A DNA stretch of 64,000 bases from contig KQ965780.1 of the NCBI GenBank assembly GCA_001574975.1, positions 226,137 to 290,136 of the forward strand. The letters are read 5' to 3'. The stretch is from Gonapodya prolifera JEL478. Taxonomy: Eukaryota; Monoblepharomycota; Monoblepharidomycetes; Monoblepharidales; Gonapodyaceae. Below the pieces are notes generated by a model. That model was not told the DNA's origin. It saw only the letters and a list, made by a program, of their open reading frames with translations, and did not search any database. This document shows positions 2,740 to 58,946 of this stretch, in pieces (the first letter of the stretch is position 1; the number at the start of each line of letters is the position of its first letter). Both the position numbers and the translations under genes were made by a program.

Positions 2740-2867
2740 TGATGGACCCCTGTTGCACCACCTTTGTTTGTTGGAGGTCTCAATCACCATTCCCATCATG
2801 GGTTTAGGAGCGTCGATGGAGTGGCGAGTTTCTCGTTGGGACTTCCCAGTATCAGAATACCTCGAGT

Positions 2868-3465
2868 GTATTTATATACGTGTAACGGAACAGATGTGCA
2901 GTCTCTTCGTTGTTGTTTCGCACTCCACGTTACTTTCTATCTCAAAGCACAATTTTGTAGGACCTTCACTGAAGTTTTTAATCTTATTACTGCAAATGCA
3001 AGAGAGGAAACAATGCACACTACCCTAAAGAACAAATACTAAGCAAATCTTCCAACTCTTCCACACCTTCTCCATCGCGAATGTTGATTTTCCAGCACAT
3101 TAGTCGTCGAGGTCACCTCTCAACCGCGTTCCGAGTGCTGATGGCTCTTGATATTCTTGCCACTACACAAACACCATGTCAGCATCACTTCCTAACTTTC
3201 ACTGATCGGCTACACGCACCTGCACACAAAACGATGCACACCGTCACGAAACTTGCACTCGTTGCACACGTACAGTCTGGTCTTCTTGAGTTTCCCCTTG
3301 TTGAGGACGCGGCACTCGAGCACAATCCACTCTTTGTTGCACAAATGCTCCACTCGGTAAAGCGGCCAGTCCACCTCAGGGATGCACGGGAGGCTCAAAA
3401 TGGACCAACCACGAGTATTGCCAGGGGCTCTGAGGAGCGATATTGAAACAAGATTTGAGAACAGG
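2868..3465. repeat. Duplicated block, copy A (partner at 56541-57153)
   Basis: This block is repeated in the same orientation at 56541-57153. The right 400 bases are nearly identical by eye; the left 200 bases are clearly related but more diverged. It covers the last exon of gene A (minus strand), part of the intron before it, and about 340 bases beyond its stop, probably the 3' untranslated region. Similarity starts about 130 bases past the stop of the F-box/EF-hand gene and ends inside the last intron of gene A. It is a segmental copy of a gene end; I see no transposon features. Confidence 0.75.
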
Positions 3466-5055
3466 CTTGGCCTGACGTCGAGTCCTGGACGCGAACTCAC
3501 CGACCGCCGGCACCATGGCACCTTGAGCAGCCCCGAAAATTGCCGCTGATATCCACGAGGAGAGCTTCGTTGTCGTGCTTTGGGACCCAGAGATCGCCTG
3601 GGATGTTTGGGGGCGTGCTCCCTCCGGAGGACAAACTTCCAAATTCAGAGCCCGAGGGGCTTCGGGCAATAGAGACCGGGCTGTTGAAGAGTGCGAGTCA
3701 TTTGAGTTTTGCGGGAGATACAACAGGGACAGGATGTGTTTGGTACACATACCTGGAAACAGGAGACTGAATGGGCGACCAATTGCCTTGACGGGGAACT
3801 TGCCAGTGCTGGAAGGGTCACGTCGTCATTATGAATGTGGCCGAAAAATGAACAATACGATCAACGCACTGCAGCAATGCCGTCGCCGAGCAATTCGGAG
3901 AGAATTGCTTTGGGCAGGAACTGCACGCCTGTGGAAGTTCTGACGGGCCAGTTGTCGCGCTAGCAAAGCAGTGGCATGATGTTTTTCAGTTTTCTGTGAG
4001 GCAAGCGAGACTAGAAGACTGTGTTCTCACCATCAAGTCCGCCATCTCCTCTTGACGGACGACAGACTAGAAGAGTTTCAAGGTGAGAAGGCGATTTCTG
4101 GCCATCTGGCATGAATGGAACAGCGTGCGAGCTCACCAATATGGTGGTAGTGGGCTGCGCGGTGAAGAGATTGCATAATGTTGAGCACTTTGCAGTAGTT
4201 CGAGAAGAATTACATTTGGCATACCTGAGAAGGACCCGGAACCGGCGCCACTGCCACTTGAGGCATTGCAGTCATCTGAATCATAAAAGGGTACTTTTAG
4301 ACCGTTGGGTCTTTTATTTTGGGGAGAAAAACTTACCGTGCTTGGTGGGAAACCTCCACCAAAGGAATTTACGTAGGTGGAAGGGTTGATCCCAAGCTTT
4401 CAGAGAACGCGAACGCGTCATTCAAGGCATAATTTGGTTCCACGCACGTCGAAGAAACATACCGTTTGAGGGACTTGGTGGGGGCGCAGCACGATTGCTT
4501 GTTGGGGTCGTTGGAGAGCCAGGGCCTAAAGCACAACCATGGGGTATCATGGACCATTTGACTGCCTTAATACGCAATGAAGTCTCACCAAAATTGTTGG
4601 TTGTGGGACCCCGAGATTAAGTGGGTCGAACGTTCCCACGCCAGACGCAATGGCGGCTTGGTTTTGGAGTGCGCCGATTTGCGGGAGCTGCTACAGAGTT
4701 AGTTTGTATTCTGTGAAAATAATGAACATCACAACAAAAGTGTGGAACGTACCCCGTAAGGACCGCCGGGGTGGTGAAAGTCTTGAGTAATAAATGGCGA
4801 TCTTGACAAAGTCACAAAAAAGTTGGGTCGGTGCTAGACTCGTGAACCATGATTGCTTGAGCTTACTGGACAGGCGCATCGCTGTTGAAGTCGTTTTCGG
4901 GATGAGTTGTCGTTTGAGATAGGAGTTCATCGAAGGTAGAGAAGTCAAAGTTACTGCGGGTATTGATGGTCGACATCGGTGTCTTTGGGTGAAATATGAG
5001 CGTGGAACATACCTGCCGTCGTCAGAGAAGCCGTCCTCGTGGGATCCGAAGTTCA
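3210..5055 (-). CDS. Gene A: Q/P/S-rich protein with C-terminal six-cysteine domain (possible transcription regulator)
   Basis: This multi-exon minus-strand gene starts at ATG 5055 (MNFGSHEDGFSDDG). Good GT-AG joins give an acidic, aromatic N-terminus (FDFSTFDELLSQ), then Q/P-rich exons (QLPQIGALQNQAAI; ALALQRPQQAIVLRPHQ; TAMPQVAVAPVPGPSQ) and a Ser/Pro linker. The C-terminal domain has CSRC, then an intron, then PCIP, YRV and an ending VCNECKFRDGVHRFVCR, with the stop at 3210. Six cysteines in CxxC pairs suggest metal binding. Acidic and Q-rich regions plus a Cys-rich domain look like a transcription factor, but I do not recognise the family. The same domain, with the intron in the same place, occurs in the gene at 58176, and the last exon is copied at 56541-57153. 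Exons between about 3780 and 3930 are uncertain. Length is near 400 residues. Confidence 0.6.
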
Positions 5056-5165
5056 TTTTGCGTCTTCCGTGTCTCAAGATGCAGGTTGCTTTGTGCTTTC
5101 ATTGCGCTTTCCTTCCGCTGTTTAAATATTGCGGGGCTACGTGGGCATCCTGACACCATATCTTG

Positions 5166-6826: not shown

Positions 6827-9800
6827 ATGAACACCCACGCTCGAATGGAGGTCGAAACGAGAGTTATGGAAAAGGGGGGAGGGTTGATGGAAGGGGAGGG
6901 AACTTCGGAGATGAATGATGATGGAATGATTGAACATCAACAGGAACACGAATCAGAGGGCGACGCAAATGCAGGAGACGATGTTGGGACAGAGACAGAC
7001 GGCGAAAATGTGACGGAGCCAAGCGCGAGTGAGAGCGAAGTACTCTCCGACTCCATGAGTCTCACCCCAGAGGACTCGGACGCAGACGACGATTTGCGCA
7101 GCGACGTATCGGATTCGCAGCTGTTTCCTGGATTTGAGTTGGCGCTCGCACGAGCCCACGAGAGTAAACCATCCCTCGACAACACCACAATGCCCGCCTC
7201 ACAACGGCGTCTCAACCTCTCAACATCAACTACTACCGGGCGTGTGCCAATCAAAACAGTAAAGCTGCCTGATGTGACTCCCCCTGCTGCCACGAAAACG
7301 TCCACACAGCGTACAAATGACCCTCGGCCGATCCGGGCAGCGCTCGTTGCCAGAACTCTCAGAGACGTCAGACGCGCGCGTACTTCCTGGGAAGATGCGG
7401 CAGTGCACTTGGAGGATGCCATGGCCGAGTTGGATCATTGGGAGGTGCGTTAGCAGCCCGTTCAAGTACACCTCGAATGTCTTCTCCATCCTAATTTTTT
7501 ATACCGACTCTCTGTCAGGGCCAAGCACAGACCCTTCATGAAGACGTATCTGTCCTCTACACTGCCCTGTCTCCATTCCTTTCTCATCAGGCCGGGGACC
7601 CAAGACACCATATTGGTGGACATGAAAGAGTCCACGCTGGTGGACTCGCGGGCCAATCGGAGCAAAGATGGAGTGGTGATCCAGAGGTACACTGAAGCGA
7701 GGGGGTAGGCGGCTCAATTTCAGCTCTTAACCAACCTTTGACACACCGAATCACACAGACCCTTCCACATTCGCCATTCGCCAACCCAGTCACCGACCCA
7801 CCTGCCAACCTCATCCCCCTATCCATTCTCCTTAACCACCGCCCGCCGCCGCCCACAAACGTTTCTCTCTCCCGGCGTCCTACCTACTCAATTGCGTTTC
7901 GAGACTTCAATGACGCCCGCTCGCACCTTTCCAATGCAATCTCCCAAGTCGACGAAGTGAGATCGGCGATACCCCACCTGACACGCAGTCTGGAAGAGAC
8001 CGCCCTGGAGGCCGGACATGTCGCAATGGACGCTAGGGGGATTGTCAGCGATGCAAGGGAGGCCGGATTGTTCGGTAGAGGGGTGCTGGAGGAAGAAAAT
8101 TGGGAAGCTGCAGAGGATGCTCCCGTAGCACACATTGTAGACGTTGTGGAGAAGAGCCTCGTCGGCATCCTCGCACAGCTCAAGGAACGAGAGTCTGTCA
8201 GGCGGAAAAATGCCACCGCAGCTGCGCAATCTCAGAGAAATCCGAACAATAAACCTCCTTCCAGAAGCCCGCGCCGGCCTCCGTCTCCAGGAGACGAGGA
8301 AAAGGCCCGAGTTGCTGCAGAAAGGGCCGCGCAAAGAGTGCGTGATAGGACTGCGGCGAGAGGTGCGAGCGGAGGTGCTGGCAGGGAAGAGCGAATGGAG
8401 AGGGTGGCCAGGGTGCTGGAACGGGCGAAGGCCGCGGTTGGCCCAGCTGGGGCTCGCGGAAAATCTACAGGCAGCTCTGGGGCACCGAGAGGTAGAGCCC
8501 CTGAGGTGAAGCACACAACGGGGATTGCGAGACCTGTGCCACCGCTCCCTTCAGCTCCCGGAGGAGGCATGACAGGTTCCCTGAACGGCTTGGCGGCTCT
8601 CCTGGAATCCTCCTTGCGCGCAAAGCGGGAGAGAGAGGAGAGGGCGAAGAGGATAGAGAAGCGAAGAGGGAAGGGGACAAAGCAGGAGAAAGCTAAGGAG
8701 GGGCTGAGCGAGACAGGCGAGAAGGAGGCTGACGAGGAGGATGTGAAGGCGAAAGATGAGAATATGTCTGGATACCAGGATGCGGAGTCAATGGAGGTCA
8801 TTGAGCCGATGATACAAGCCTTGCATGATGACCTGGGTGTTACTGGTTTGGACCCAACCAAAGATCCCCCGTTACCCCAGTCGCTCATCTGTCCACTTCC
8901 TCCACTCGATTCTCGGAGAACACCGTCGGTACCTCGGTTGCCTACACCGGCTCACTTGGAGGTCGCTGTACCAGTGGTAGAGAGCGAGCGAGGGGTTTGG
9001 GCTGCTGTGGAGGCTCTCACGGGGGAGCAGAAACCAGCGTCAATGGAGGGGCCTCGAAGGGTCGGGAGCTTGGGTGGATTGAGGACGGGGAAGGACGAAA
9101 AAATGAGAAGGATTCCCAAAGGGAATGGCTTTTTGGGAACGAAAAGCAAGGGTCAAAGAAAGGGGGAGGGAACGGGTCGGCAACTTGAGTCGGTGGAAGG
9201 AAAGAACGTTAGTATGGACGGATGGGTGGTGCCCAGGGTGACGGTGGTCGAAAAGCCCGGTGCAAGGAGCAGAGAAGTTGAGAATCCGGGCGGCTCTTCT
9301 ATGAAACAGTTATCTGGCCCACAGGAAGATGAAGCAAATGAGGTCGCTGTGCTCCTGGGGGGAATGAAGGCCAAGCAAGGACCAGATGGGTCATGGATAT
9401 GGGATAAAGCGACTCATATAGAGCTGGAAAATCCAGGTGTCGGTGGGTGGGCGTGGGCCGTGGAGCTCGATGAAGTTGATCAATGGAAAGGAAAAGGGCC
9501 GCGTTGGACGATGGAGGTTGATAAGACGGGTGGCACGTTAGGAGGTGCTGAGAAGACTGTTTTGACAGTGAGGTTGATAGGGTCGCGGGCTCCATTTGAA
9601 TACGAGGAATGGGCCCAGGAGATGGGAGGGGAAGGCGGGGATGGAGCAGCAAAAAGCCAAAAAGAAGAGGTTGAGGTGGGCAGGATGTTTGGACTCAAAT
9701 TCAACCCAATACAGCACGAGAAAGCTGACCCCAATTCAACCTCTTTGGACGAGTGGTCCTGCGATATGCCGGCTCCCGCTGAAGTGATGCTTCGATGTAG

Positions 9801-12800
9801 AGGTATCCTTATGCCTCCAGCGATGACGGTATACCCACACGTGATCGATCTGGGGGTCATGGTGGCGGGGCAAGTTTTCGAGCGGACCATCGCGATTCGG
9901 TGGAGGGGCAAGGGGGGCACTGGCGTTGTGGTGGCGGTAGTGGCGCCCGAATTCGCATCCGGGAGGAGAAGTGGTGGTAGGGGTGTGAAAGATGGAAAGT
10001 CTGGGGACAATGTTGTCGCGGAGGTAACCGGATTGGGCGAGGTCATGGTAGAGCCCGGGAAGGCCTTCGTTCAGAATGGTGGTGTGTTGAGCGTGTTGGT
10101 AAGAATTGTGCCGCGGACGAGAGAACTGGTCAGGGTGGAATGTGATGGAGCTTTAGAGAGGCGGATCACGTTCATGGTCGTGGTTCGGAGTGCCGGGGGA
10201 ATGGGAGGAGCCAGACACACCGCACAGGTGCCCTTTTCCGGATCCGTCACTCTTGGCGATGTGATGGTGGCACTGAGCGGTGCGCAGGGGCTTACAAACC
10301 ACATTCTCACCTTCCCCCGCACGAATGTGTCCTCCACTCGTGATGCGCGCTTCTCGCTGCACAATCTTGCCGCCCTGGGCCAAAGGGCAGAGATAGCGGT
10401 GAAGGGTGGCACTACCGCCGCGTTTTCTTTGGAGGGACTGGATAATGGCGGTGGGTTGTGGCTTGGACCAGGTGAGAGGAAGGAAGTTGGCGTGATTTTC
10501 GCGCCCAAGATCAAAGGAGAGGCTAGGACAATCGTGAGGGTACGTCCAGGCTTAGGTGGAGAAGGAGGTCAGTTGCAGCTTGTGGGGATAGGGACAGTTC
10601 CTGGCGCGACTTTTGTGGAAGATTTGGTGGAATTTGCCGGCACCGCGGCGGGTGGCAAAAGAACGGTTATGGTGCGGATGAGGGCATTGGGTATTGGAGG
10701 TGCATCAGCCGATAGGGAGAGAGGCCCCCCAGAGTTGGTGCTGGATCCCGATGACCCGGAGGAGTTCGTTCGGCTCGCAAACGAGAAAGGGTGGACTTTC
10801 GAATTCGGGACACCTCTCTGCTGTGGGGTGATGGTGAGAGACGCAAATGGTGAAGGAGAGTATGTGGAGCTTGATTCCGCAAAGGAGATTGGCAAAGACA
10901 CTGTGGAGGGAGAAGAGGGAGGGTTGCTCCGAGCGCCGAAAGTCACTGTGATTTCAGGAGAGCTAGTATCAATAGTCCCACGCAAAGGTTTCATTCGGGC
11001 TGGCCAAGAGCGCGTCGTTGAGGCGGTGTTTTCACCAACATTTGATCCGGTCACGAAATCGTATGGAGGACTCTTGTTCCAGGGACTCGAACATCTAGGA
11101 CTATTTGGTCCGCCTGTGCTAGCACAGGCACTGTCGTCGCAGGGAATAGAGAGTGGTGTGTCAGGCGAGCCAAATTCCGCAGAGACCAGTGTCCTCCCTT
11201 TAGAGAGTCCCGCGGTTGCGAAGTTGAAATTGAACGCGACTGGCAAATCGAGTGCTGAGCTTCGTGGTTCTGGTCAGCTGAAACTGCCAACTGGAAGAAA
11301 AGGTGACACAAAGCTATCGCAAGCACAACTGGATGCGAGCAAGCAGGCTCTGGCAGAAAAGACAGCAGCCGATGTAGCGATGGAAGAAGAATTAAAGAAA
11401 CGCCAGCAAGAGAGAGATGCCAAAGAAGCTCTCAGGTCAATGAAAGAGATAGCCTTGGACTTGAAGGTGCCATGTTTGGTGAGAAAATGGTCGCCCACCC
11501 ACGACAGCTCAAGGGAAACGGACTTTGTGGCAGCGGAAGAGACGATGTATTTACACGTGATTGCTCCCATACTGCGACCCGCTGTGCAAATCGTTGAGCC
11601 CATTTCTTCATCTCTGGAATTCTTACCTATCCCTGCGGGACAGACTATCACGAAGAAGCTCATTATCCGGAACTTGATGGACCAACCACTGACACTCAGT
11701 CTTGTGGACGTGTCGCAACCACGAACATTTCGTATTCTCAAAGATTGCGTCAATGTGCCTGCCATGCAGGAAGGAGCCCTGGACGTTCAGTTTTGTCCAG
11801 AGACCCCTCATAGGTTCAGAGCGACAGCTGTGCTCACTGATGGGGCCTTCACGAATGCCCCGATTACGTTCAGGGGTCGAGGCTTCATTCCCAAGGTTTC
11901 CATCACGCCGACAACTGATATTTTGGACTTTGGTACAGTTCTCCTTACGGATGGCCCTGTGCAACGGTCTTTTTTGTCGGTCGCAAACGAATGTGACTTT
12001 ATTGTGTCGTTTAAAGCGACATTCGAAAATGTGGAGAGTGAGGCGGCAGTACCCAAAGTATTCACGTGCGAGGCTGGGGAAGGCATTGCGGCACCAGCGT
12101 CCAAAGCGTCGGTGAATCTGATTTTCGAAGTAAGTTCGGAAGTTCGTGTTTGAGTTGTCCTCAGTTGCTGATCACGAGCTCTATGTACAGCCAATGGCCG
12201 AAGGAGTTGTGTCTTCGGATCGCCTCAACGTCAACGTTTTCGGGATCAAAGAAGAATTCTCGTGGAAGGTTCACGGCCGCTCTACGGCCACTTCCCTGCA
12301 TCTTACTGGAATGGATTTCTTGACGAGCGACAATGATATGAACTCGACAGCAAGAAATTGGCGCAGGGAACTAGCGGACCTTGTCAACAGGATCGGCGGA
12401 AATCGTCCATCTTCCGCTTCCAAGAGTAAAGGAGGTGATCAACCACTTGAACTTGTGGATGCTCAACGGATCACTCTGGCCGACATCCAAAACTTCCCAG
12501 CCGATGTTGATTTCGGTAATGTTAAAATTCCGTTGTTCAGGTTGCTCAAATCGTACGAACGGATCCAATTCGCGTCTGTAACAATGAAATGGATCAAGGC
12601 AGAAGATGTGTGCATTTCCGACGGAAAGTGTTGGAAGCTGGAAATGAAAGATTTGTTAGTAGTCAATTCCAAGTCAAACCCTCCGTCAGCCATGCAAGTT
12701 GCAGGTGGTACAGGCTCACAATCAAAAGGGGTACCACCTAGTAAGCCTGCAAAAGCTGGGCAGAGCTTCCCCGGTGATTTCATCATCGAACGGTTCAAAG

Positions 12801-14945: not shown

Positions 14946-21544
<6,599 letters not shown>

Positions 21545-21704
21545 AATTAGAACGGCGAAGTTCGTCAATATTATATAACGTCGCCTGCGTAAACATGGAA
21601 CGCCAGAAAAGAGTGCCAAGCCGGTTACCGGTAAAAGGCGAGTTGAACCGAGCAAGGCATTGAGCCTTCGACTTCAAAAGGCCCCCTCTGCCTCTCTTTC
21701 GCAG

Positions 21705-23525
21705 ATGCATTTGACGGACATTCTCTCGGATTTTGGGGTGACTCCGTTTCTGCTCGCGCTTGTGCTCGCACTGGTGCTGCTCTCCCAACCTCGTGCCAAA
21801 CCACTTTCGGCGATCCCCACAAGTCGCCTCGTGGAATGGCTCCCCTTCTACCGAATGGCCATCATAGCCACAGGACAGTCTCATTTGTTTGAGCTGTCGC
21901 TGCATAAACGATTCGGCAGTGTCGTCAGGTATGGTCGTCCCTGCAGGTTCTGTCCCCCCCTGCTCTTCTATGGCATTCTGATTACAGACTCAATGACACT
22001 GCGATATCAGTGGCAGACCCGGATATTGCCTACAAGTTCCTTCGCATCGACGACATAAAAAAATCGAGGTTCTACGAGCGCCTGAGACGAAACAACGATC
22101 CCCCCAACCTCGTCACGCATCGGGACCCCGTGGAACACAAGGCCATGCGGCACCTCGTCTCCCCGGCGTTTTCGATCCGCTACCTCGCCGGTCTTGAACC
22201 GCTCATGGGCGAACTGATCGAGGAGCTGGAAAAGTCTCTTGGGAGCTCCCCTCGAGTGGACATGGGCCGGGTGTACCACCTGTTTGCGATGGATTTCATC
22301 TCGAAAGCGGCGTTTGGGCAGTCCCTGCACGCGGTCGTCAATGGGACGCACCCGTTCATAGCGAACCTCAAGTCGGGCCTCCTGTGGGCGGTGGTTGGAT
22401 TGGCCTTTCCTTTCATTCCCACCCACAAATTCCCAGCTGTGAAACGACTGAGGCAGTCCAACGACTCGATCATCGACTCATTCATCTTCGATAGGCGCAA
22501 AATGAACGAAGAGGGAAAAGTGAGTTTTTCCACGTGCATACTCAAAGTTTGTTCTCACTCGCATGCTCATCTGCGTATCAGCGGAGGGATGACATTCTGC
22601 AAGTGCTCATGGACCAGAATTTGGACCACCTACCGCTCCGAACAAACCTGCGCGTGTTCTTCACGGCAGGGTCAGAGACAACCGCCAACACCTTAACATG
22701 GGCGACATACATGCTCCTCAGGAACCCACAGACGCTCGAGCGACTTCGGCAGGAGCTGGACTCGGCGTTCCCCGACGGGCTCCGCGTCGTGTTACCCGTG
22801 TCAGCGCTCAAAACCCTCCCGTACCTCAACGCTGTCATCAAAGAGACGCTTCGACTTCGCCCAGTGGCCGCCACCGTAAGCCGCGAAATCGAAGAGGACA
22901 CGACCATAACTGGACACCGCGTGGACGGAACGCCGGTTGTGTATCACGTTCCGGGCGGGACGCATGTGGATGTGTCGATCTGCGCGCTTCAACGAAATCC
23001 ACAGAGTGGGTTGTCTTTTCTCTGACTTGTGGTTTGCGCAGGACAGCCGTGAATTGACAGCGTCATTTGTGTTTCGTTTCCCGGACAGTTTGGATCCGCC
23101 CTGACGACTTCTGGCCAGAACGGTGGCTCGCCGAGATCAGCGGCGACGAGGAAGCGTGGGGTGTTGGGAGCGAGGGCAAGGGTGACGAAAAGCACTCTGA
23201 GAGATTCGTTTACGGGACCCCCAAGGTTGTCTGCAGGGAAGCGTATATACCGTTTTCGATGGGTTCAAGGGACTGTATTGGGAGGAACTTGGCGTGGAAT
23301 GGTACGTTGCCCATCGCGGTTCTCGAGCTTGCACGGTATGAGACTGACGATGTGTCCTCGGTGTCGTCACACACAGAACTGCGAGTGGTTCTTGCCCATG
23401 TCGTGCGACGATATGACATCACAGCGGAGTTTGACACGTCACTCGATCTGCAGGGGAAAGAATACGTGACGGTGGGGTTAGGCTCGAAAACGGGGCTTCC
23501 CGTGAAGCTTCACAGGCGTCAGTGA
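21705..23525 (+). CDS. Cytochrome P450 monooxygenase
   Basis: The start is ATG 21705; an upstream in-frame TTG is not needed. Residues 10-27 (FLLALVLALVLLSQ) form an N-terminal ER anchor. The I-helix oxygen-binding motif is FFTAGSETT, the K-helix ExxR is ETLR, the PERF region is DFWPERW, and the haem loop FSMGSRDCIGRNLAW supplies the Cys thiolate ligand. Introns lie near 21929-21990, 22519-22583 and about 23004-23088, all GT-AG and in phase. It is a microsomal class II enzyme needing an NADPH-P450 reductase. The substrate is unknown. Sitting between two drug-type transporters suggests detoxification, but co-regulation is not shown. Confidence 0.9.
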
Positions 23526-23564
23526 TTATGTTCTATGTTCATTGAATTGAATGTACAAAATACG

Positions 23565-24073
23565 TCACTTTTTTATCGAGAAATCTTCGTATTGGAGCGC
23601 TTCTATGTCCGTCTCGTTCGAAAACTCTACTCGGTCAATTCGGGATTGTGGTGAGCCACGAGTTCGGAGCCAAATCTTCCTGCTCAGAGCATTGAGGCGA
23701 AATATATCGTCGCATCGCAACCATCATCGTGCTTACATGGTCTCGACCTGTTGGCGGAGAAGTGGTTTCCACCGGCGTTTCCCAAGAAAGCGCAGACATG
23801 GAGACATCCACTCACTTTCTTTCGTTCTCCCTCCATCACCCCCTGTACCGTTCCCCTGTCCGTGTTCTTCACCCATCCAACCAGTCCAAGCTCGATCGCC
23901 CGCCGCGATGTGTACTTTCTAAAGAACACGCCCTGCACGACACCCCACACCTCGAATGCTGAGCTGATCGCGGTACAGGCACATGAAGTCAGCGTTGTGG
24001 GATGAGCTCGGAGTTGGATACGGACCTCACTAGAGGTGACGATGCCATGCTTTGGTTGTGTTTGTGCCTTCAT
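23565..24073 (-). CDS. Acylphosphatase
   Basis: Three exons on the minus strand give a protein of about 103 residues, the normal size. Exon 1 starts at ATG 24073 and ends at GTGAGG. Exon 2 carries the signature VWGVVQGVFFRKYTSRRA and LGLVGWVKNTDRGTVQGV, with the phosphate-binding loop and the catalytic Arg (in FFRK) and Asn (in VKNTD). A short exon adds VET, and the last exon gives MKIWLRTRGSPQSRIDRVEF to the stop at 23565, closely matching the C-terminus of animal acylphosphatases. It hydrolyses acyl phosphates such as 1,3-bisphosphoglycerate in the cytosol. It is tail-to-tail with the P450 gene, with 39 bases between stop codons. Confidence 0.9.
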
Positions 24074-24625
24074 TTGTACCGACACGGACCAACCTGGATT
24101 TTCATCGTCAACCTTTGACGCGGCCCCCCCGCACTTAGCTCCAAAGAGCTACTCATGTCCAAAGGTCTGAGTAGCATATGTGCTGTTGGCACTTTGCGAT
24201 GAAACACTCGATTCTGGGCGCGTCCGGAGCACGGCGTTGAATACTCGCAGCTCTCGATTCAAGCGCATTGCTCAAAACTCCGAGTATTACGAGGATACCT
24301 CTTACAGATACATGTTGCGAACCAGGCCCTCATCCACACTAAGGAAGCCCCATGTCAACTACTGTTACTTTTGCGACGCCACAAGAGGAGCGAAACGACA
24401 GCGAGCTAGGGGAGAACCATTTCTTCAGACAATCTCAACCCTGAGCTGTGCTAAGTGGGGGGCGGCGTATCCTAAACCTTTCAGGGGCCGTGGTAATACA
24501 AGTGCAACCGTCCACACCGTCCACCAAGGAAAATCTCTTTGCTCCCACACACATACAAAACCCATTCTTGACACTCCTCCAACACACAGCCTTCCCATTC
24601 GATCGAACTAAGAAATCCTTTTTCC
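24074..24625. other. Intergenic region upstream of the MFS gene
   Basis: About 550 bases lie between divergent genes. A 143-codon open frame on the plus strand (24180-24611) has no recognisable domain and irregular composition, so I do not call it. A CT-rich stretch just before 24626 could be part of the leader of the MFS gene. Confidence 0.35.
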
Positions 24626-27197
24626 ATGAGCAATTTCACGACCGCCGCAGACACAGATCAAGATCTCGAGAAGAAAGCGGTGCTTGTTCTTGATATCAAC
24701 CTGACAGAGTCCGCCAAGCTTGATCTGGAAGAGCAAAAAAATGACCAAAAACTTCCATTCACGACCTTGGTCACGGTGCTGTCTTTGTCACTCATCAGTA
24801 AGCACACGTTTTTTTGCGCCATAAATATAACACAATTCACAGTTCCGTTCTACTTCTTTACTCCCCGATAGTGGTGAGCTTTTTCATGACCATAGCGCAG
24901 TTCCGACCTCCACCCCCTCAATTCCCGTGTGATCAACTGTAGGCAATCGCCACACTGTGCTCGACTCTTGTTGGTGAGTGCACATATTCTTTGTGTGCCG
25001 CCCGTTTGTTCGTCCACCTCTCGTTGTACTTCTCGTGAACAGCCCAAATGCTCCCTACGATCGCTAGAGAACTTGACGGGCAGTCCAATTACGCGTGGGT
25101 CGGAACAGGGTACTTGCTTTCAAGTAAGTAGCACGTTGTCTCAACTTTTTGCACGTGATCTGAACTTTTGCATTTCGCTCCGTGAATTCAATTCAGGCAC
25201 CGCGCTCTCCCCTGCCTGGGGCTCTCTCTCCGACATTGTGAGAACTGAGCTCTCGCTTCCCCACTCTGCTCCTTCCATCTCACTGTGCCTTACCCGTTAC
25301 CTCCCCCTCCAGTTTGGTCTGAAGAATGTCCTCATATTCAACATTGTCGAGCTCATGGTGTTCACTGCCGTCTGCGGCGCCTCTACGTCCATGACCATGC
25401 TTATCGTGGGTAGAATCATGCAGGGTATCGGCGGCGGAGCCCTAATCGCACTGGCCTTTGTCGTCATTGGAGAAGTCAGTAAGTAACTTTGGAGCGTGAT
25501 TCTTCATGATCTCCGAAATAAACCGAGACAAACTATGCACATAGTCCCTCCTTCGGAACTCGGAAAGTACACCGGCATCTTGGGTGCTATTGTCGGATCC
25601 ACAGCCGCCATCGGGGTGAGTTGACGCCTGTTCTTTTCACACAGCCCCGAATCTGAACTCTCAATTCCCTCTCTCATCCACGACCCCCTCACCGTAAAGC
25701 CCCTCATCGGCGGCCTTATTGTCGACAACCTTGGCTGGCGCTGGGGCTTCTACATCGTGCTTCCCTTTGCCGGATTGGCTCTCGTGGGCGCCATATTCGG
25801 CGTCAAGGTCTCGCACCCAAAGGGAACGTTCCGTGAACAAATCTTGCGTGTCGACTACCTCGGCTTCGCTCTCCTCACCGGCGCATGCATCGCCTTGCTC
25901 CTGGCCCTCTCATGGGGCGGCAATACCTACGGATGGGCCAGCGCAGAGGTCATTGGGTGTTTCGTGGTCTCGATTGTTTTGGTCGTGGCGTTTATACGGT
26001 AGGAGGGCCGGTACGCGAGGGAGCCCATCGTGCCGCTGGAGCTCTTCAAGTCGTGGAACTATGTGGTATCAGTCACGTCTCTTTTCTTTGTGGGGTGGGC
26101 CATATATGGGCTCTCGTATTTTATTCCAGTACGTGACTGGTGACGATGTACCTCTGTAACTCCCCGACCATCTTCTAATTCGTCATGCACTTTCTCAAGC
26201 TCTACTTTCAGACTGTCCGCGGAATGAGCGCGACGGACAGTGGGGTCAATAATCTGCCCTTTACGTGAGTGCTTTTCTTGCTCAAGTGCCTTCCCACGAG
26301 CCAACGCAACTTGTCCCAGTGTTTTTATGATTGTGTTTTCATTGGTAGCCGGCATTTTTGTCGCCCATACCGGCCAATACCGGTTCATATCTGCGATTGG
26401 GCTTGCCCTCCTCGCCATTGGCGTTGCGGTATTCTACATCTGGGATACGGGCAGCCCCGCTGTGGTGTATATTGCACCGCAATTGGTCGCCGGGGCGGGG
26501 GCAGGGTTCGTCACAAATGTGGGGCAGATGGTTGCTCAGACGAGCGCGCCCAAAAAGGTGGGTGCGGCGTATGACCCGGCAAGGGGCCCGGTGTTGAGTT
26601 TCAAATTGACAAGTCTTGGTATCGTCTTGCTTCCCTCGCTAGCTTAATGGCCCAGCATCGACAATTGCAAACTTTGGACGACTTGTTGGCGGGTAAGCGT
26701 CATCCTCGCTGGTGCAATGGTGGACGTGCACAATCCAACGTTTCGTTTTTCCTGCTTTTTCGCGCTGCTCATTTCACCAGGGCAATCGGTATCGCCGTGT
26801 TCCAAACCATTTTCTCCAACATTCTCAAGTCCAAGGTTCCGGGTTACTTTACCGCAGTTGCCATCCAGTACCGGCTCAAGCCCGAGCAGCTCGCGGTGAG
26901 TTCAAGTTTACAACTGCATGTATCATGCTCTCACACAACACTCTTCCTGAAACTGTCGTCCCACAGCTCTTCAACTCCTTCCTAAACAACCGCTTCTCGG
27001 CCCAAAGAACAGACATCTCCAGCATACCCTCCGACGCCCTGGCCGCCCTCGGTGGAGCATACAAGCAAGCGACTGTGGACTGGCTTCGCTTGTTGTTTAT
27101 CTCGGGGGCTGCCGTTGTGGCAGTGGGGGCTGGGCTTGCGCTGTTTGTCAGACACGTCCCGTTGAGGAAGACTCTTAAGGATGAGGATGAGTCGTAG
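24626..27197 (+). CDS. DHA2-type (14-helix) MFS drug:H+ antiporter, with an in-frame stop
   Basis: The start is ATG 24626, with a soluble acidic N-terminus of about 50 residues. The helices carry family motifs: LCSTLVAQMLPTIARELDG (helix 1 to loop), WVGTGYLLS, IVGRIMQGIGGGALI, GPLIGG-like PLIGGLIVDNLGWRWGFYIV (motif C region), then 14-helix features, SAPKK and NGPASTIANFGRLVGG, and the stop at 27195-27197. At least eight short introns join in phase. At 26000-26002 a TAG interrupts the frame between VAFIR and EGRYAREPIVPLE, and no GT-AG intron of plausible length removes it. The frame on both sides is otherwise well conserved. Either the allele is a recent pseudogene, the base call is wrong, or the stop is read through. 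Confidence 0.75.
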
Positions 27198-27230
27198 GTG
27201 GGACAGGTGTAGGGCAAATAGGGGAGGCAG

Positions 27231-29181: not shown

Positions 29182-30356
29182 ATGGAAAATTCTCCACGAC
29201 TTGTCACAACTCTCCCCCTACCAGAACTCTCCAGTCTTCCTGCGGGATCGATCGCATCAGTTCCACTCCTTCATTCCACAATCTCCATCCTCTTTGCCCA
29301 ACATGCCCTCGACCCAACAATCGCGCCCTTTCCACCAGGCGATCGTGTGATTCCAAAGAGTCTCGCCTACCATGCTCGGCTGATCGAGACCACGCTCATA
29401 CTTCTGGGCCTCTGTGAAGTCAGTGACGAGGGTGACGGTACCGACGTCGAAGCTGTTTTGATCGCCGCGGCGGGCCAGCACGTCAGGAGGTGGGAGGTCA
29501 AGAGAGAATCGTTCCCAGAGGGGCTTTCTGGGTGGGTAGAGAAATGAATTGGCGGCTCGGGTGGAAAATGGTTCACGATCAGGATCTCTCGATGGATGGG
29601 AGGTTGAATCTTCCAACGAGGTCGCTCTTTTTCGTCAAAGTATATTCACAGGAAGCTTATGGAACTAAGTTTTAAGAGGAAACGGATCTCTGTGTGGAGG
29701 AAGCGAAGTACCCATCACACTCCCATCTCCACAGGTACAAAGCCTGGCGAACCCACCTTGGCCGGGTCCACGCCACTCACGTTGAATCTGCCATGCGCGA
29801 AGCCGGCTACGGTCTCCCCGTCGCACCGCGCACTGGCGAAACTCTGGACCAGGATCGTGGGGAGCGCACTGTTGCTCGGTGTAAAGAGCTCCTTGTCAAA
29901 AAGGGGCTTCCCGCGCTGGCTGGCTGGCGGGAGGCGCAAGCGGCGCAGTCTGGAACGGGGTCTTTGCCAGAACGCCTGACGGATTATCCCGCCGTACAGC
30001 TGTTGGAAGACGCAGTGTGCATCGTGTTTTTGGAACACGAGATGGAGGACTTTGCTGGGAAGATGGTGGAGCGCATAACCGAGGGCACCGTAGGGCCACC
30101 AGCTCATCCGTCCTCCAACAGTGGAGATCCTGGACCTGCACCTGCCGACGTTACCGCATCGGCCTCTTCTGCCGCCGCACGCACGAAACTCATTTCCATC
30201 GTCCGCAAGACATGGGCGAAGATGGGACCTCTGGGTAGACGCATTGCCGTCGAGGAGGTGGTGCAGAATATGCCTGACGGAAGGAAAGAGGTGGTCGAGG
30301 AGGCTGTGCGGGGATACAGCGCAAAGAGTGCCGAAGGTGGGGGTGGAGTGAAATGA
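29182..30356 (+). CDS. DUF4202 family protein
   Basis: Two exons (29182-29531 and 29735-30356) join in phase to give 323 residues. Exon 1 contains the Arg/His-rich core AAGQHVRRWEVKRESFPEGL. The join forms GLSGYKAWRTHLGRVHATH, matching the family pattern RxGYxxWRxxLxxxHA. Exon 2 adds VQLLEDAVCIVFLEHEMEDF and LISIVRKTWAKMGPLGR, the other two family hallmarks. DUF4202 proteins are widespread in fungi and bacteria. The conserved His, Asp and Glu pattern suggests an HD-like all-helical hydrolase fold, but no reaction is established. The extra length comes from a Pro/Ala insertion near residues 250-265. Confidence 0.85.
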
Positions 30357-56540: not shown

Positions 56541-57153
56541 TTTGGTGTATTTATATTCATGTGGCGGAACCAATGTACACTCTCTTTGTCGGTGTTTCGC
56601 TATCCTCAATAGGTTGCTCTTAAAGCCTCAAATTGAGCTGGACCATTTTCGCTCTACATTTTGTATTATTGCAAATGCAAGAGGGAGAACCATGTACATT
56701 ACACTACTGAACAGAAACCGAGCAACACTTCCACACTTCCACCTCTTAAGCTCCTATTTTGAATGTCGATTTTCCAGCACATTAGTCGTCGAGGTCACCC
56801 CCTCAACCGCGCTGCGAGTGCTGATGGCTCCTGATATTCTTGCCACCACACAAACACCATGTCAGCATCACTTCCTAACTTTCACTGATCGGCCACACGC
56901 ACCTGCACACAAAATGATGCATACCGTCACGAAACTTACACTCGTTGCACACGTACAGTCTGGTCTTCTTGAGCTTCCCCTTGTTGAGGACGCAGCACTC
57001 GAGCACAATCGACTCTTTGTTGCACAAGTGCTCCACTCGGTACAGCGGCCAGTCCACCTCAGGGATGCACGGGAGGCTCAAAATGGACCAACCACGAGTA
57101 TTGCCAGGGGCTCTGAGGAGCGATATTAAAACAAGATTTGAGAACAGGTTTAC
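56541..57153 (-). pseudogene. Copy B: duplicated 3' end of gene A (last exon plus flank)
   Basis: This is the partner of the block at 2868-3465. The minus strand keeps the splice acceptor and the whole last exon of the six-cysteine domain (SLPCIPEVDWPLYRVEHL, VCNECKFRDGMHHFVCR) with only a few amino-acid changes. The stop of gene A is changed here, so the frame runs on for six codons (WPISES). There is no upstream exon of the family: sequence beyond 57153 belongs to another gene, and the left edge abuts the SDS3-like copy with no gap. It is therefore a gene fragment unless spliced to something unrecognised. Confidence 0.65.
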
Positions 57154-58175: not shown

Positions 58176-58946
58176 ATGGGCTACTCTCTTCCAAGCACGA
58201 GCTCGAGTCCACAGGGTGCGCCACACTCGACTTGGCAGGAGAGCAACCCCAATGTGCTTGAAGCCCCACGACGGCATGGAAATGTGTCGATCAAAAGACT
58301 CAACGGCAATTTCGGGTCATGTGTTGACTGCCGCGCGGTGGGAGGGCGGTGAGTTTTGGTGGCCGTGACCTATGCCATTGCATTTTGCAACATTGCCGTT
58401 GATAACCACACCTGCTACCACAGCGCAATCGGCGGCAGCAACAGATGGTCTCTCAGCAACTTTCCCTGCATCCCACGATCTGAGTACCACCGTTACCGCG
58501 TGGATTACCTCTCCGACGACACGTGGGATGTGCTGCAATTCGGCATTATGGAGGAAGATGGCACAATCAAGCAAGGTCGAAAAATGTTCGTGTGCAAGGT
58601 GTGCAAATTCCGCAACGGCGATCATTACTTTGTGTGCAGGTACGTGTATGAAGGGCTGAACGACCGGGATGAGATGCTGATGACTTTGTGTATCCGGCAG
58701 CGGCAAAAACAAAGCCAAACACAGACACTCTGCCAATGGTTTCCAGGCTTGAGCAATACGGATACGTCGACATTTTCAACATCGTCCAGCCACCACAACC
58801 TCTCTCATAGCAGAGATTGCACCACATCAGTGGTTTCACTCAAAATGTCGAGTCTTTGCGTAGTTCGACAATGGGCGATCCGGCGATCAGCAAAGCATTT
58901 CACTTTCTCATATTTTTTTTTATCACACGCTGTGCCAATAAGATGA
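58176..58946 (+). CDS. Gene C: second member of the six-cysteine domain family
   Basis: Exon 1 (58176-58348) reads MGYSLPSTSSSPQGAP, a Ser/Pro-rich linker, then LNGNFGSCVDCRAVGGR. After a GTGAGT-CACAG intron, exon 2 (from 58424) gives WSLSNFPCIPRSEYHRYRV, DDTWDVLQFG and MFVCKVCKFRNGDHYFVCRY, and runs to a stop at 58946 (231 residues if it does not splice again). Gene A has the same order: GNF-xx-CxxC-GGR, intron in the same codon phase, PCIP, YRV, VCxxCKFR-x-G-x-H-x-FVCR. The two differ at more than half the positions, so the shared residues are likely constrained. The 5' end may be incomplete. Function is unknown; a metal-binding DNA- or protein-binding domain is inferred. Confidence 0.55.

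What the first reader, a model, noticed from the sequence alone, without database searches (positions are those of the whole stretch)
58176..58946. An apparently undescribed six-cysteine domain family (genes A and C, plus copy B)
Gene A (3210-5055, minus) and gene C end in the same domain: GNF-xx-CxxC-xxx-GGR, an intron at the same codon and phase, PCIP, YRV-xx-L, W-x-VL, then VCxxCKFRxGxHxFVCR. Overall identity by eye is well under half, yet all six cysteines, the CKFR and FVCR motifs and the intron are kept, which points to selection on a metal-binding fold. Gene A has acidic and Q/P-rich regions upstream, as in transcription activators. I cannot match it to GATA, Zn2Cys6, WRKY/GCM, FLYWCH or BED domains.
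Basis: partly seen in the sequence, partly recalled or inferred. Interest (0 to 1): 0.75.

Follow-up and report, generated by a model that had tools for sequence, protein, structure and literature searches.

The report
Orphan zinc-domain gene family in Gonapodya
A small family of genes in the aquatic fungus Gonapodya prolifera ends in a shared, probably zinc-binding domain that matches no catalogued protein family and was found in no other organism searched; the proteins look like gene regulators, but this has not been tested.

Summary
The window is from Gonapodya prolifera JEL478 (Monoblepharomycota). It adds an SG-x-N-x3-H tail, so the motif is C-x2-C-x19-22-PC-x38-41-C-x2-C-x10-C-x7-H-x1-2-H: six Cys and two His, enough for two zinc sites. 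A, P0001 and P0002 also share a second module and further intron positions; C is a domain-only version. No Pfam family reached its cut-off, solved structures gave no significant match, and a profile search of 5.8 billion proteins returned three proteins, all from this species. Comparison with WRKY and GCM was not significant, although ligand order and low-confidence models resemble that class. Best explanation: a lineage-restricted family of zinc-finger transcription factors (acidic N-terminus in A and P0001, basic zinc domain). The family is well supported; zinc and DNA binding are inferred.

The parts
3120..5056 (-). Gene A, 14 exons, 362 aa: 5056-5013, 4953-4867, 4801-4753, 4690-4589, 4525-4463, 4396-4337, 4275-4225, 4154-4137, 4066-4031, 3959-3870, 3808-3753, 3680-3501, 3429-3220, 3162-3120
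   Evidence: Hand-built model; 13 of 13 introns GT-AG, 57-72 nt. The script printed the last exon to 3116; the stop codon in its translation falls at 3122-3120.
3120..3544 (-). Zinc domain of gene A, from GNFRGC (end of exon 12, exons 13 and 14)
   Evidence: Alignment of four genes: 29 of 97 ungapped columns invariant, all six motif Cys among them
3753..4066 (-). Second conserved module of gene A (exons 9-11), about 45 aa, shared with P0001 and P0002
   Evidence: 0 of 200 shuffles reach the observed score in each of three pairs; helix-hairpin-helix in both models, block pLDDT 68-76 for P0001 191-220 (48 for 221-230) and 66-70 for P0002 111-150
4867..5056 (-). Acidic N-terminal part of gene A (first 44 residues: net charge -10, no K or R)
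56545..57151 (-). Copy B: 3' fragment of gene A (part of intron 12, exon 13, intron 13, exon 14, 3' flank)
   Evidence: 85.6% identity over 613 columns; acceptor AG of intron 13 lost; Ser at the conserved Trp
58176..58752 (+). Gene C, three exons 58176-58348, 58424-58639, 58701-58752, 146 aa, zinc domain only; the public model M427DRAFT_45878 (P0003) has another last exon
   Evidence: Spliced model; public model maps exactly to 58176-58810 with a 107-nt second intron
58305..58752 (+). Zinc domain of gene C, from GNFGSC

Best explanation
A, C, P0001 and P0002 are a paralogous family, found only in Gonapodya so far, that share a ~100-residue C-terminal domain binding two zinc ions through six Cys and two His. 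Shown here: shared motif, shared introns, dN below dS, and homology of A, P0001 and P0002 beyond the domain. Inferred: the basic domain (net +6 to +10) folds as a small beta-sheet held by zinc and contacts DNA; the acidic N-terminus of A and P0001 recruits the transcription machinery; the middle module mediates pairing or partner contact. That is, these would be sequence-specific transcription factors with a lineage-specific zinc-finger domain, C being a domain-only form that might compete for the same sites.
For: Six Cys and one His invariant in 4 of 4 genes; 6 of the 8 Cys of A's domain are invariant against 29 of 97 columns overall (hypergeometric p 0.008). NG86 dN/dS: A-P0001 0.30/2.67, A-P0002 0.52/2.01, C-P0001 0.42/1.54; in the other 3 of 6 pairs dS could not be estimated. 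Two domain introns, phase 2 after GG and phase 2 after FVC/FKC, at the same codon in all four (both introns also in the public models of P0001 and P0002, and both donors in P0003). Second module with a phase-0 intron at the same alignment column in A, P0001 and P0002. Zinc domain net charge +10 (A), +6 (C), +10 (P0001), +8 (P0002); first 44 residues net -10 (A), -8 (P0001), -3 (P0002), with 9, 11 and 7 F/W/Y/L/M.
Against: No DNA-binding, zinc or localisation data, and no named relative from which function could be transferred. P0002 has only a weakly acidic N-terminus; C lacks the N-terminus and the module. Structure models of the zinc domain are of low confidence (block pLDDT 35-54 in P0001, 31-60 in P0002). 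No database protein corresponding to gene A was returned, so its expression has no support here. YN00 failed for 6 of 6 pairs and dS is near or beyond saturation, so the ratios are rough.
Confidence: 0.55

Rival explanations
1. The domain is a highly diverged member of the WRKY-GCM1 zinc-finger superfamily (WRKY, GCM, FLYWCH, FAR1, yeast Aft; the last two recalled), with the second CxxC and the terminal HxH as the usual ligands and the first CxxC and PC as an added site.
For: Ligand order C..C...H-x-H at the end of a predicted run of strands. In the non-significant GCM alignment the HxH of A falls on the HxH of GCM. PMC4350883 (passages read) reports Babu et al. 2006 as giving WRKY, GCM1 and FLYWCH a similar zinc finger and four-strand fold, and says that the Cys-His spacing varies greatly between them.
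Against: No Pfam match of that superfamily was listed. hhalign P-value 0.084 with WRKY (HxH not aligned) and 0.24 with GCM; the control WRKY vs GCM gave 0.007. An invariant third Cys lies between CxxC and HxH.
Confidence: 0.2
2. A zinc-binding module used for protein-protein contact (for example zinc-ribbon or treble-clef type) in a regulator that does not bind DNA.
For: The only Pfam hit listed is a zinc ribbon, below its cut-off (Zn_ribbon_10, E 0.048 with C, 0.037 with 1 of 6 rows); the C-x2-C-x10-C-x7-H spacing would suit a single C3H site.
Against: Basic charge of all four domains and the acidic N-termini of A and P0001 favour nucleic-acid binding, without proving it.
Confidence: 0.2
3. 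A disulphide-held domain without metal, or recent non-functional duplicates.
For: Cys-rich; one fragment (B) shows that copies decay.
Against: CxxC pairs plus a terminal HxH are typical of zinc sites (general knowledge); no signal peptide seen by eye; dS well above dN in the 3 pairs that could be estimated.
Confidence: 0.05

Closest known systems
WRKY-GCM1 superfamily (WRKY, GCM, FLYWCH, FAR1, Aft)
   Same: Cys pair followed by a terminal H-x-H; predicted strands (weak models); C-terminal, basic, DNA-binding-like domain
   Different: CxxC rather than the wider Cys spacing of WRKY (C-x7-C in group 3, passage; C-x4-5-C in the others, recalled); extra CxxC and PC; invariant third Cys; no WRKYGQK-like signature; no significant profile match
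Lunapark zinc ribbon (PF10058)
   Same: CxxC, an NG turn and a later Cys; the only Pfam hit listed (E 0.037-0.048)
   Different: 13.9 bits against a cut-off of 24.2, 24 residues only, found with gene C alone

Membership tests
WRKY-GCM1 superfamily | Match to a Pfam model of the superfamily (PF03106, PF03615, PF04500, PF03101, PF08731; accessions recalled except PF03106) | tested here: not met
   No such family listed up to E 10 for the A and C domains or for the 6 rows of A4; HMMER filters drop most weak matches
WRKY-GCM1 superfamily | Profile similarity to WRKY and GCM domains with ligands aligned | tested here: inconclusive
   hhalign P 0.084 with 5 WRKY sequences (HxH not aligned) and 0.24 with 2 GCM sequences, one of them recalled (HxH aligned); small alignments; control WRKY-GCM 0.007
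WRKY-GCM1 superfamily | Zinc ligands C..C..H-x-H/C | tested here: inconclusive
   Order present, as H-x-H in 3 of 4 genes and H-x2-H in P0002, but with an extra invariant Cys
WRKY-GCM1 superfamily | Four-stranded antiparallel fold | tested here: inconclusive
   Strands predicted at low confidence (block pLDDT 35-54 and 31-60); no Foldseek match at E <= 0.001
WRKY proper | WRKYGQK signature | tested here: not met
   Absent from the alignment of the four genes
Zn_ribbon_10 (Lunapark) | Score above the Pfam cut-off | tested here: not met
   13.9 of 24.2 bits
GATA, Zn2Cys6, BED | Pfam match | tested here: not met
   None listed

The most novel reading that the evidence does not exclude
A new class of zinc-coordinated DNA-binding domain, with two zinc sites and a fold of its own, that arose inside the Monoblepharomycota and founded a private transcription-factor family that duplicated and diversified there.
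Probability: 0.2. Interest if true: 0.7.

Novelty: new variant of a known kind. Interest (0 to 1): 0.45.

Why it matters
New DNA-binding domain classes are rarely recognised, and early-diverging fungi are poorly sampled. A four-gene family with conserved ligands and introns and no detected outside relative is a compact test of how new zinc-finger families arise. It also suggests that the public annotation of this genome may lack gene A and gives gene C a doubtful last exon.

Full report
Source. The window is G000:C50:226137-290136 of a 47.6-Mb genome. The only database relative found with gene A is M427DRAFT_142675 of Gonapodya prolifera JEL478 (P0001), on a contig of 995,747 bases, the length of C4 of this genome. 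The public protein P0003 of the same strain maps exactly onto gene C in the window. The organism belongs to the Monoblepharomycota.

Gene models. Gene A can be read as 14 exons with 13 of 13 GT-AG introns of 57-72 nt, giving 362 aa. Behind FVC lies an intron (3219-3163), and the last exon gives SGKNIKSHQHSERG and a stop. Gene C is three exons (58176-58348, 58424-58639, 58701-58752) with the tail SGKNKAKHRHSANGFQA. The public model of gene C joins to 58747 instead, through a 107-nt intron. The corrected 61-nt intron is closer to the 57, 75 and 53 nt at the same place in A, P0001 and P0002, and it restores the SG-x-N-x3-H tail that the other three genes share.

Copies. With the A exon, the own genome has five places: A itself, B (94%), P0001 on C4 (59%), C (42%) and P0002 on C6 (40%); the P0002 exon returns the same five. 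B is a direct 613-column, 85.6% copy of 2866-3468. It starts inside intron 12, lacks the first CxxC exon, and has lost the AG acceptor before the last exon. Its exon 13 differs from A at 8 of 207 bases, dN 0.025 and dS 0.097, so the exon itself is not clearly relaxed. I read B as a 3' fragment, not a third gene.

The domain. Of 97 ungapped columns 29 are invariant in the four genes, among them six Cys and one His. The motif is C-x2-C-x19-22-PC-x38-41-C-x2-C-x10-C-x7-H-x1-2-H. A and P0001 have two more Cys, which C and P0002 lack. Both domain introns sit at the same codon and phase in all four; for P0001 the mapping script cut the 75-nt first one into two adjoining pieces and listed four possible starts, of which I take 969799. 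dN lies well below dS in the 3 of 6 pairs where dS could be estimated; in the other three it could not, and the YN00 method failed in all six, so the ratios are rough.

The rest of the protein. A, P0001 and P0002 share a second module of about 45 residues; 0 of 200 shuffles reach the observed score in each of the three pairs, though for P0001-P0002 the margin is small (9.7 against a best shuffle of 8.9). It carries a phase-0 intron at the same alignment column in all three. It is the best-predicted part of both models, a helix-hairpin-helix (block pLDDT 68-76 for P0001 191-220, 66-70 for P0002 111-150). Gene C has no sign of this module. The zinc domains are basic (+10, +6, +10, +8 for A, C, P0001, P0002); the first 44 residues of A, P0001 and P0002 carry -10, -8 and -3.

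What it is not. The A and C domains and the six rows of A4 (P0001, P0002, P0003 and three window exons) gave no Pfam hit except a sub-threshold zinc ribbon. Gene A was scanned as its domain and exon pieces, not whole. In 5.77 billion proteins, 0 of 4 candidates, 1 of 48 and 3 of 3,894 scored E <= 1, and all three are G. prolifera proteins without Pfam domains. These searches need shared 5-residue words and a limited length range, so remote relatives can be missed. Gene A itself was not returned, which suggests that it is not annotated within 0.55-1.75 times the query lengths. Profile comparison gave P 0.084 with WRKY and 0.24 with GCM, against 0.007 for WRKY with GCM as control; in the GCM alignment the two HxH do coincide.

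Mechanism. Two CxxC pairs, two single Cys and a closing HxH give eight possible ligands, enough for two zinc ions; this count is from sequence, and the pairing of ligands is unknown. A basic zinc domain at the C-terminus and an acidic N-terminus is a common build of an activator, hence the proposal of a sequence-specific transcription factor; this step is inference. The ligand order resembles the WRKY-GCM1 class, for which PMC4350883 (passages) reports a four-strand fold and widely varying Cys-His spacing, so a very distant relationship is not excluded.

Verdict. A real gene family, so far known from one species, with an uncatalogued, probably zinc-binding domain; function and fold are open.

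Noticed in passing
window 3120-5056 (-): No protein corresponding to gene A was returned from the 5.8-billion protein set, although its paralogues were: it may be missing from the public annotation or modelled at a very different length.
   Followed up: partly
window 58640-58810 (+): The public model of gene C (M427DRAFT_45878) probably uses a wrong acceptor for its last intron.
   Followed up: yes
window 7738-12153 (+): Long frame with Ig-like domains of the Cep192/CFAP65/HYDIN kind near its end (E 2e-7 to 7e-4; one of four above its cut-off), fitting a zoosporic fungus with a flagellum.
   Followed up: no
window about 15200-27200 (+): ABC transporter and cytochrome P450 (Pfam) followed by what looks by eye like a major-facilitator transporter: a possible small transport/metabolism cluster.
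   Followed up: no
window 29182-29547 (+): DUF4202 protein fragment, just over its cut-off.
   Followed up: no
G000:C50: Contig length is 307,535 here but 312,780 for the record that holds P0003; the cause of the difference is unknown.
   Followed up: no
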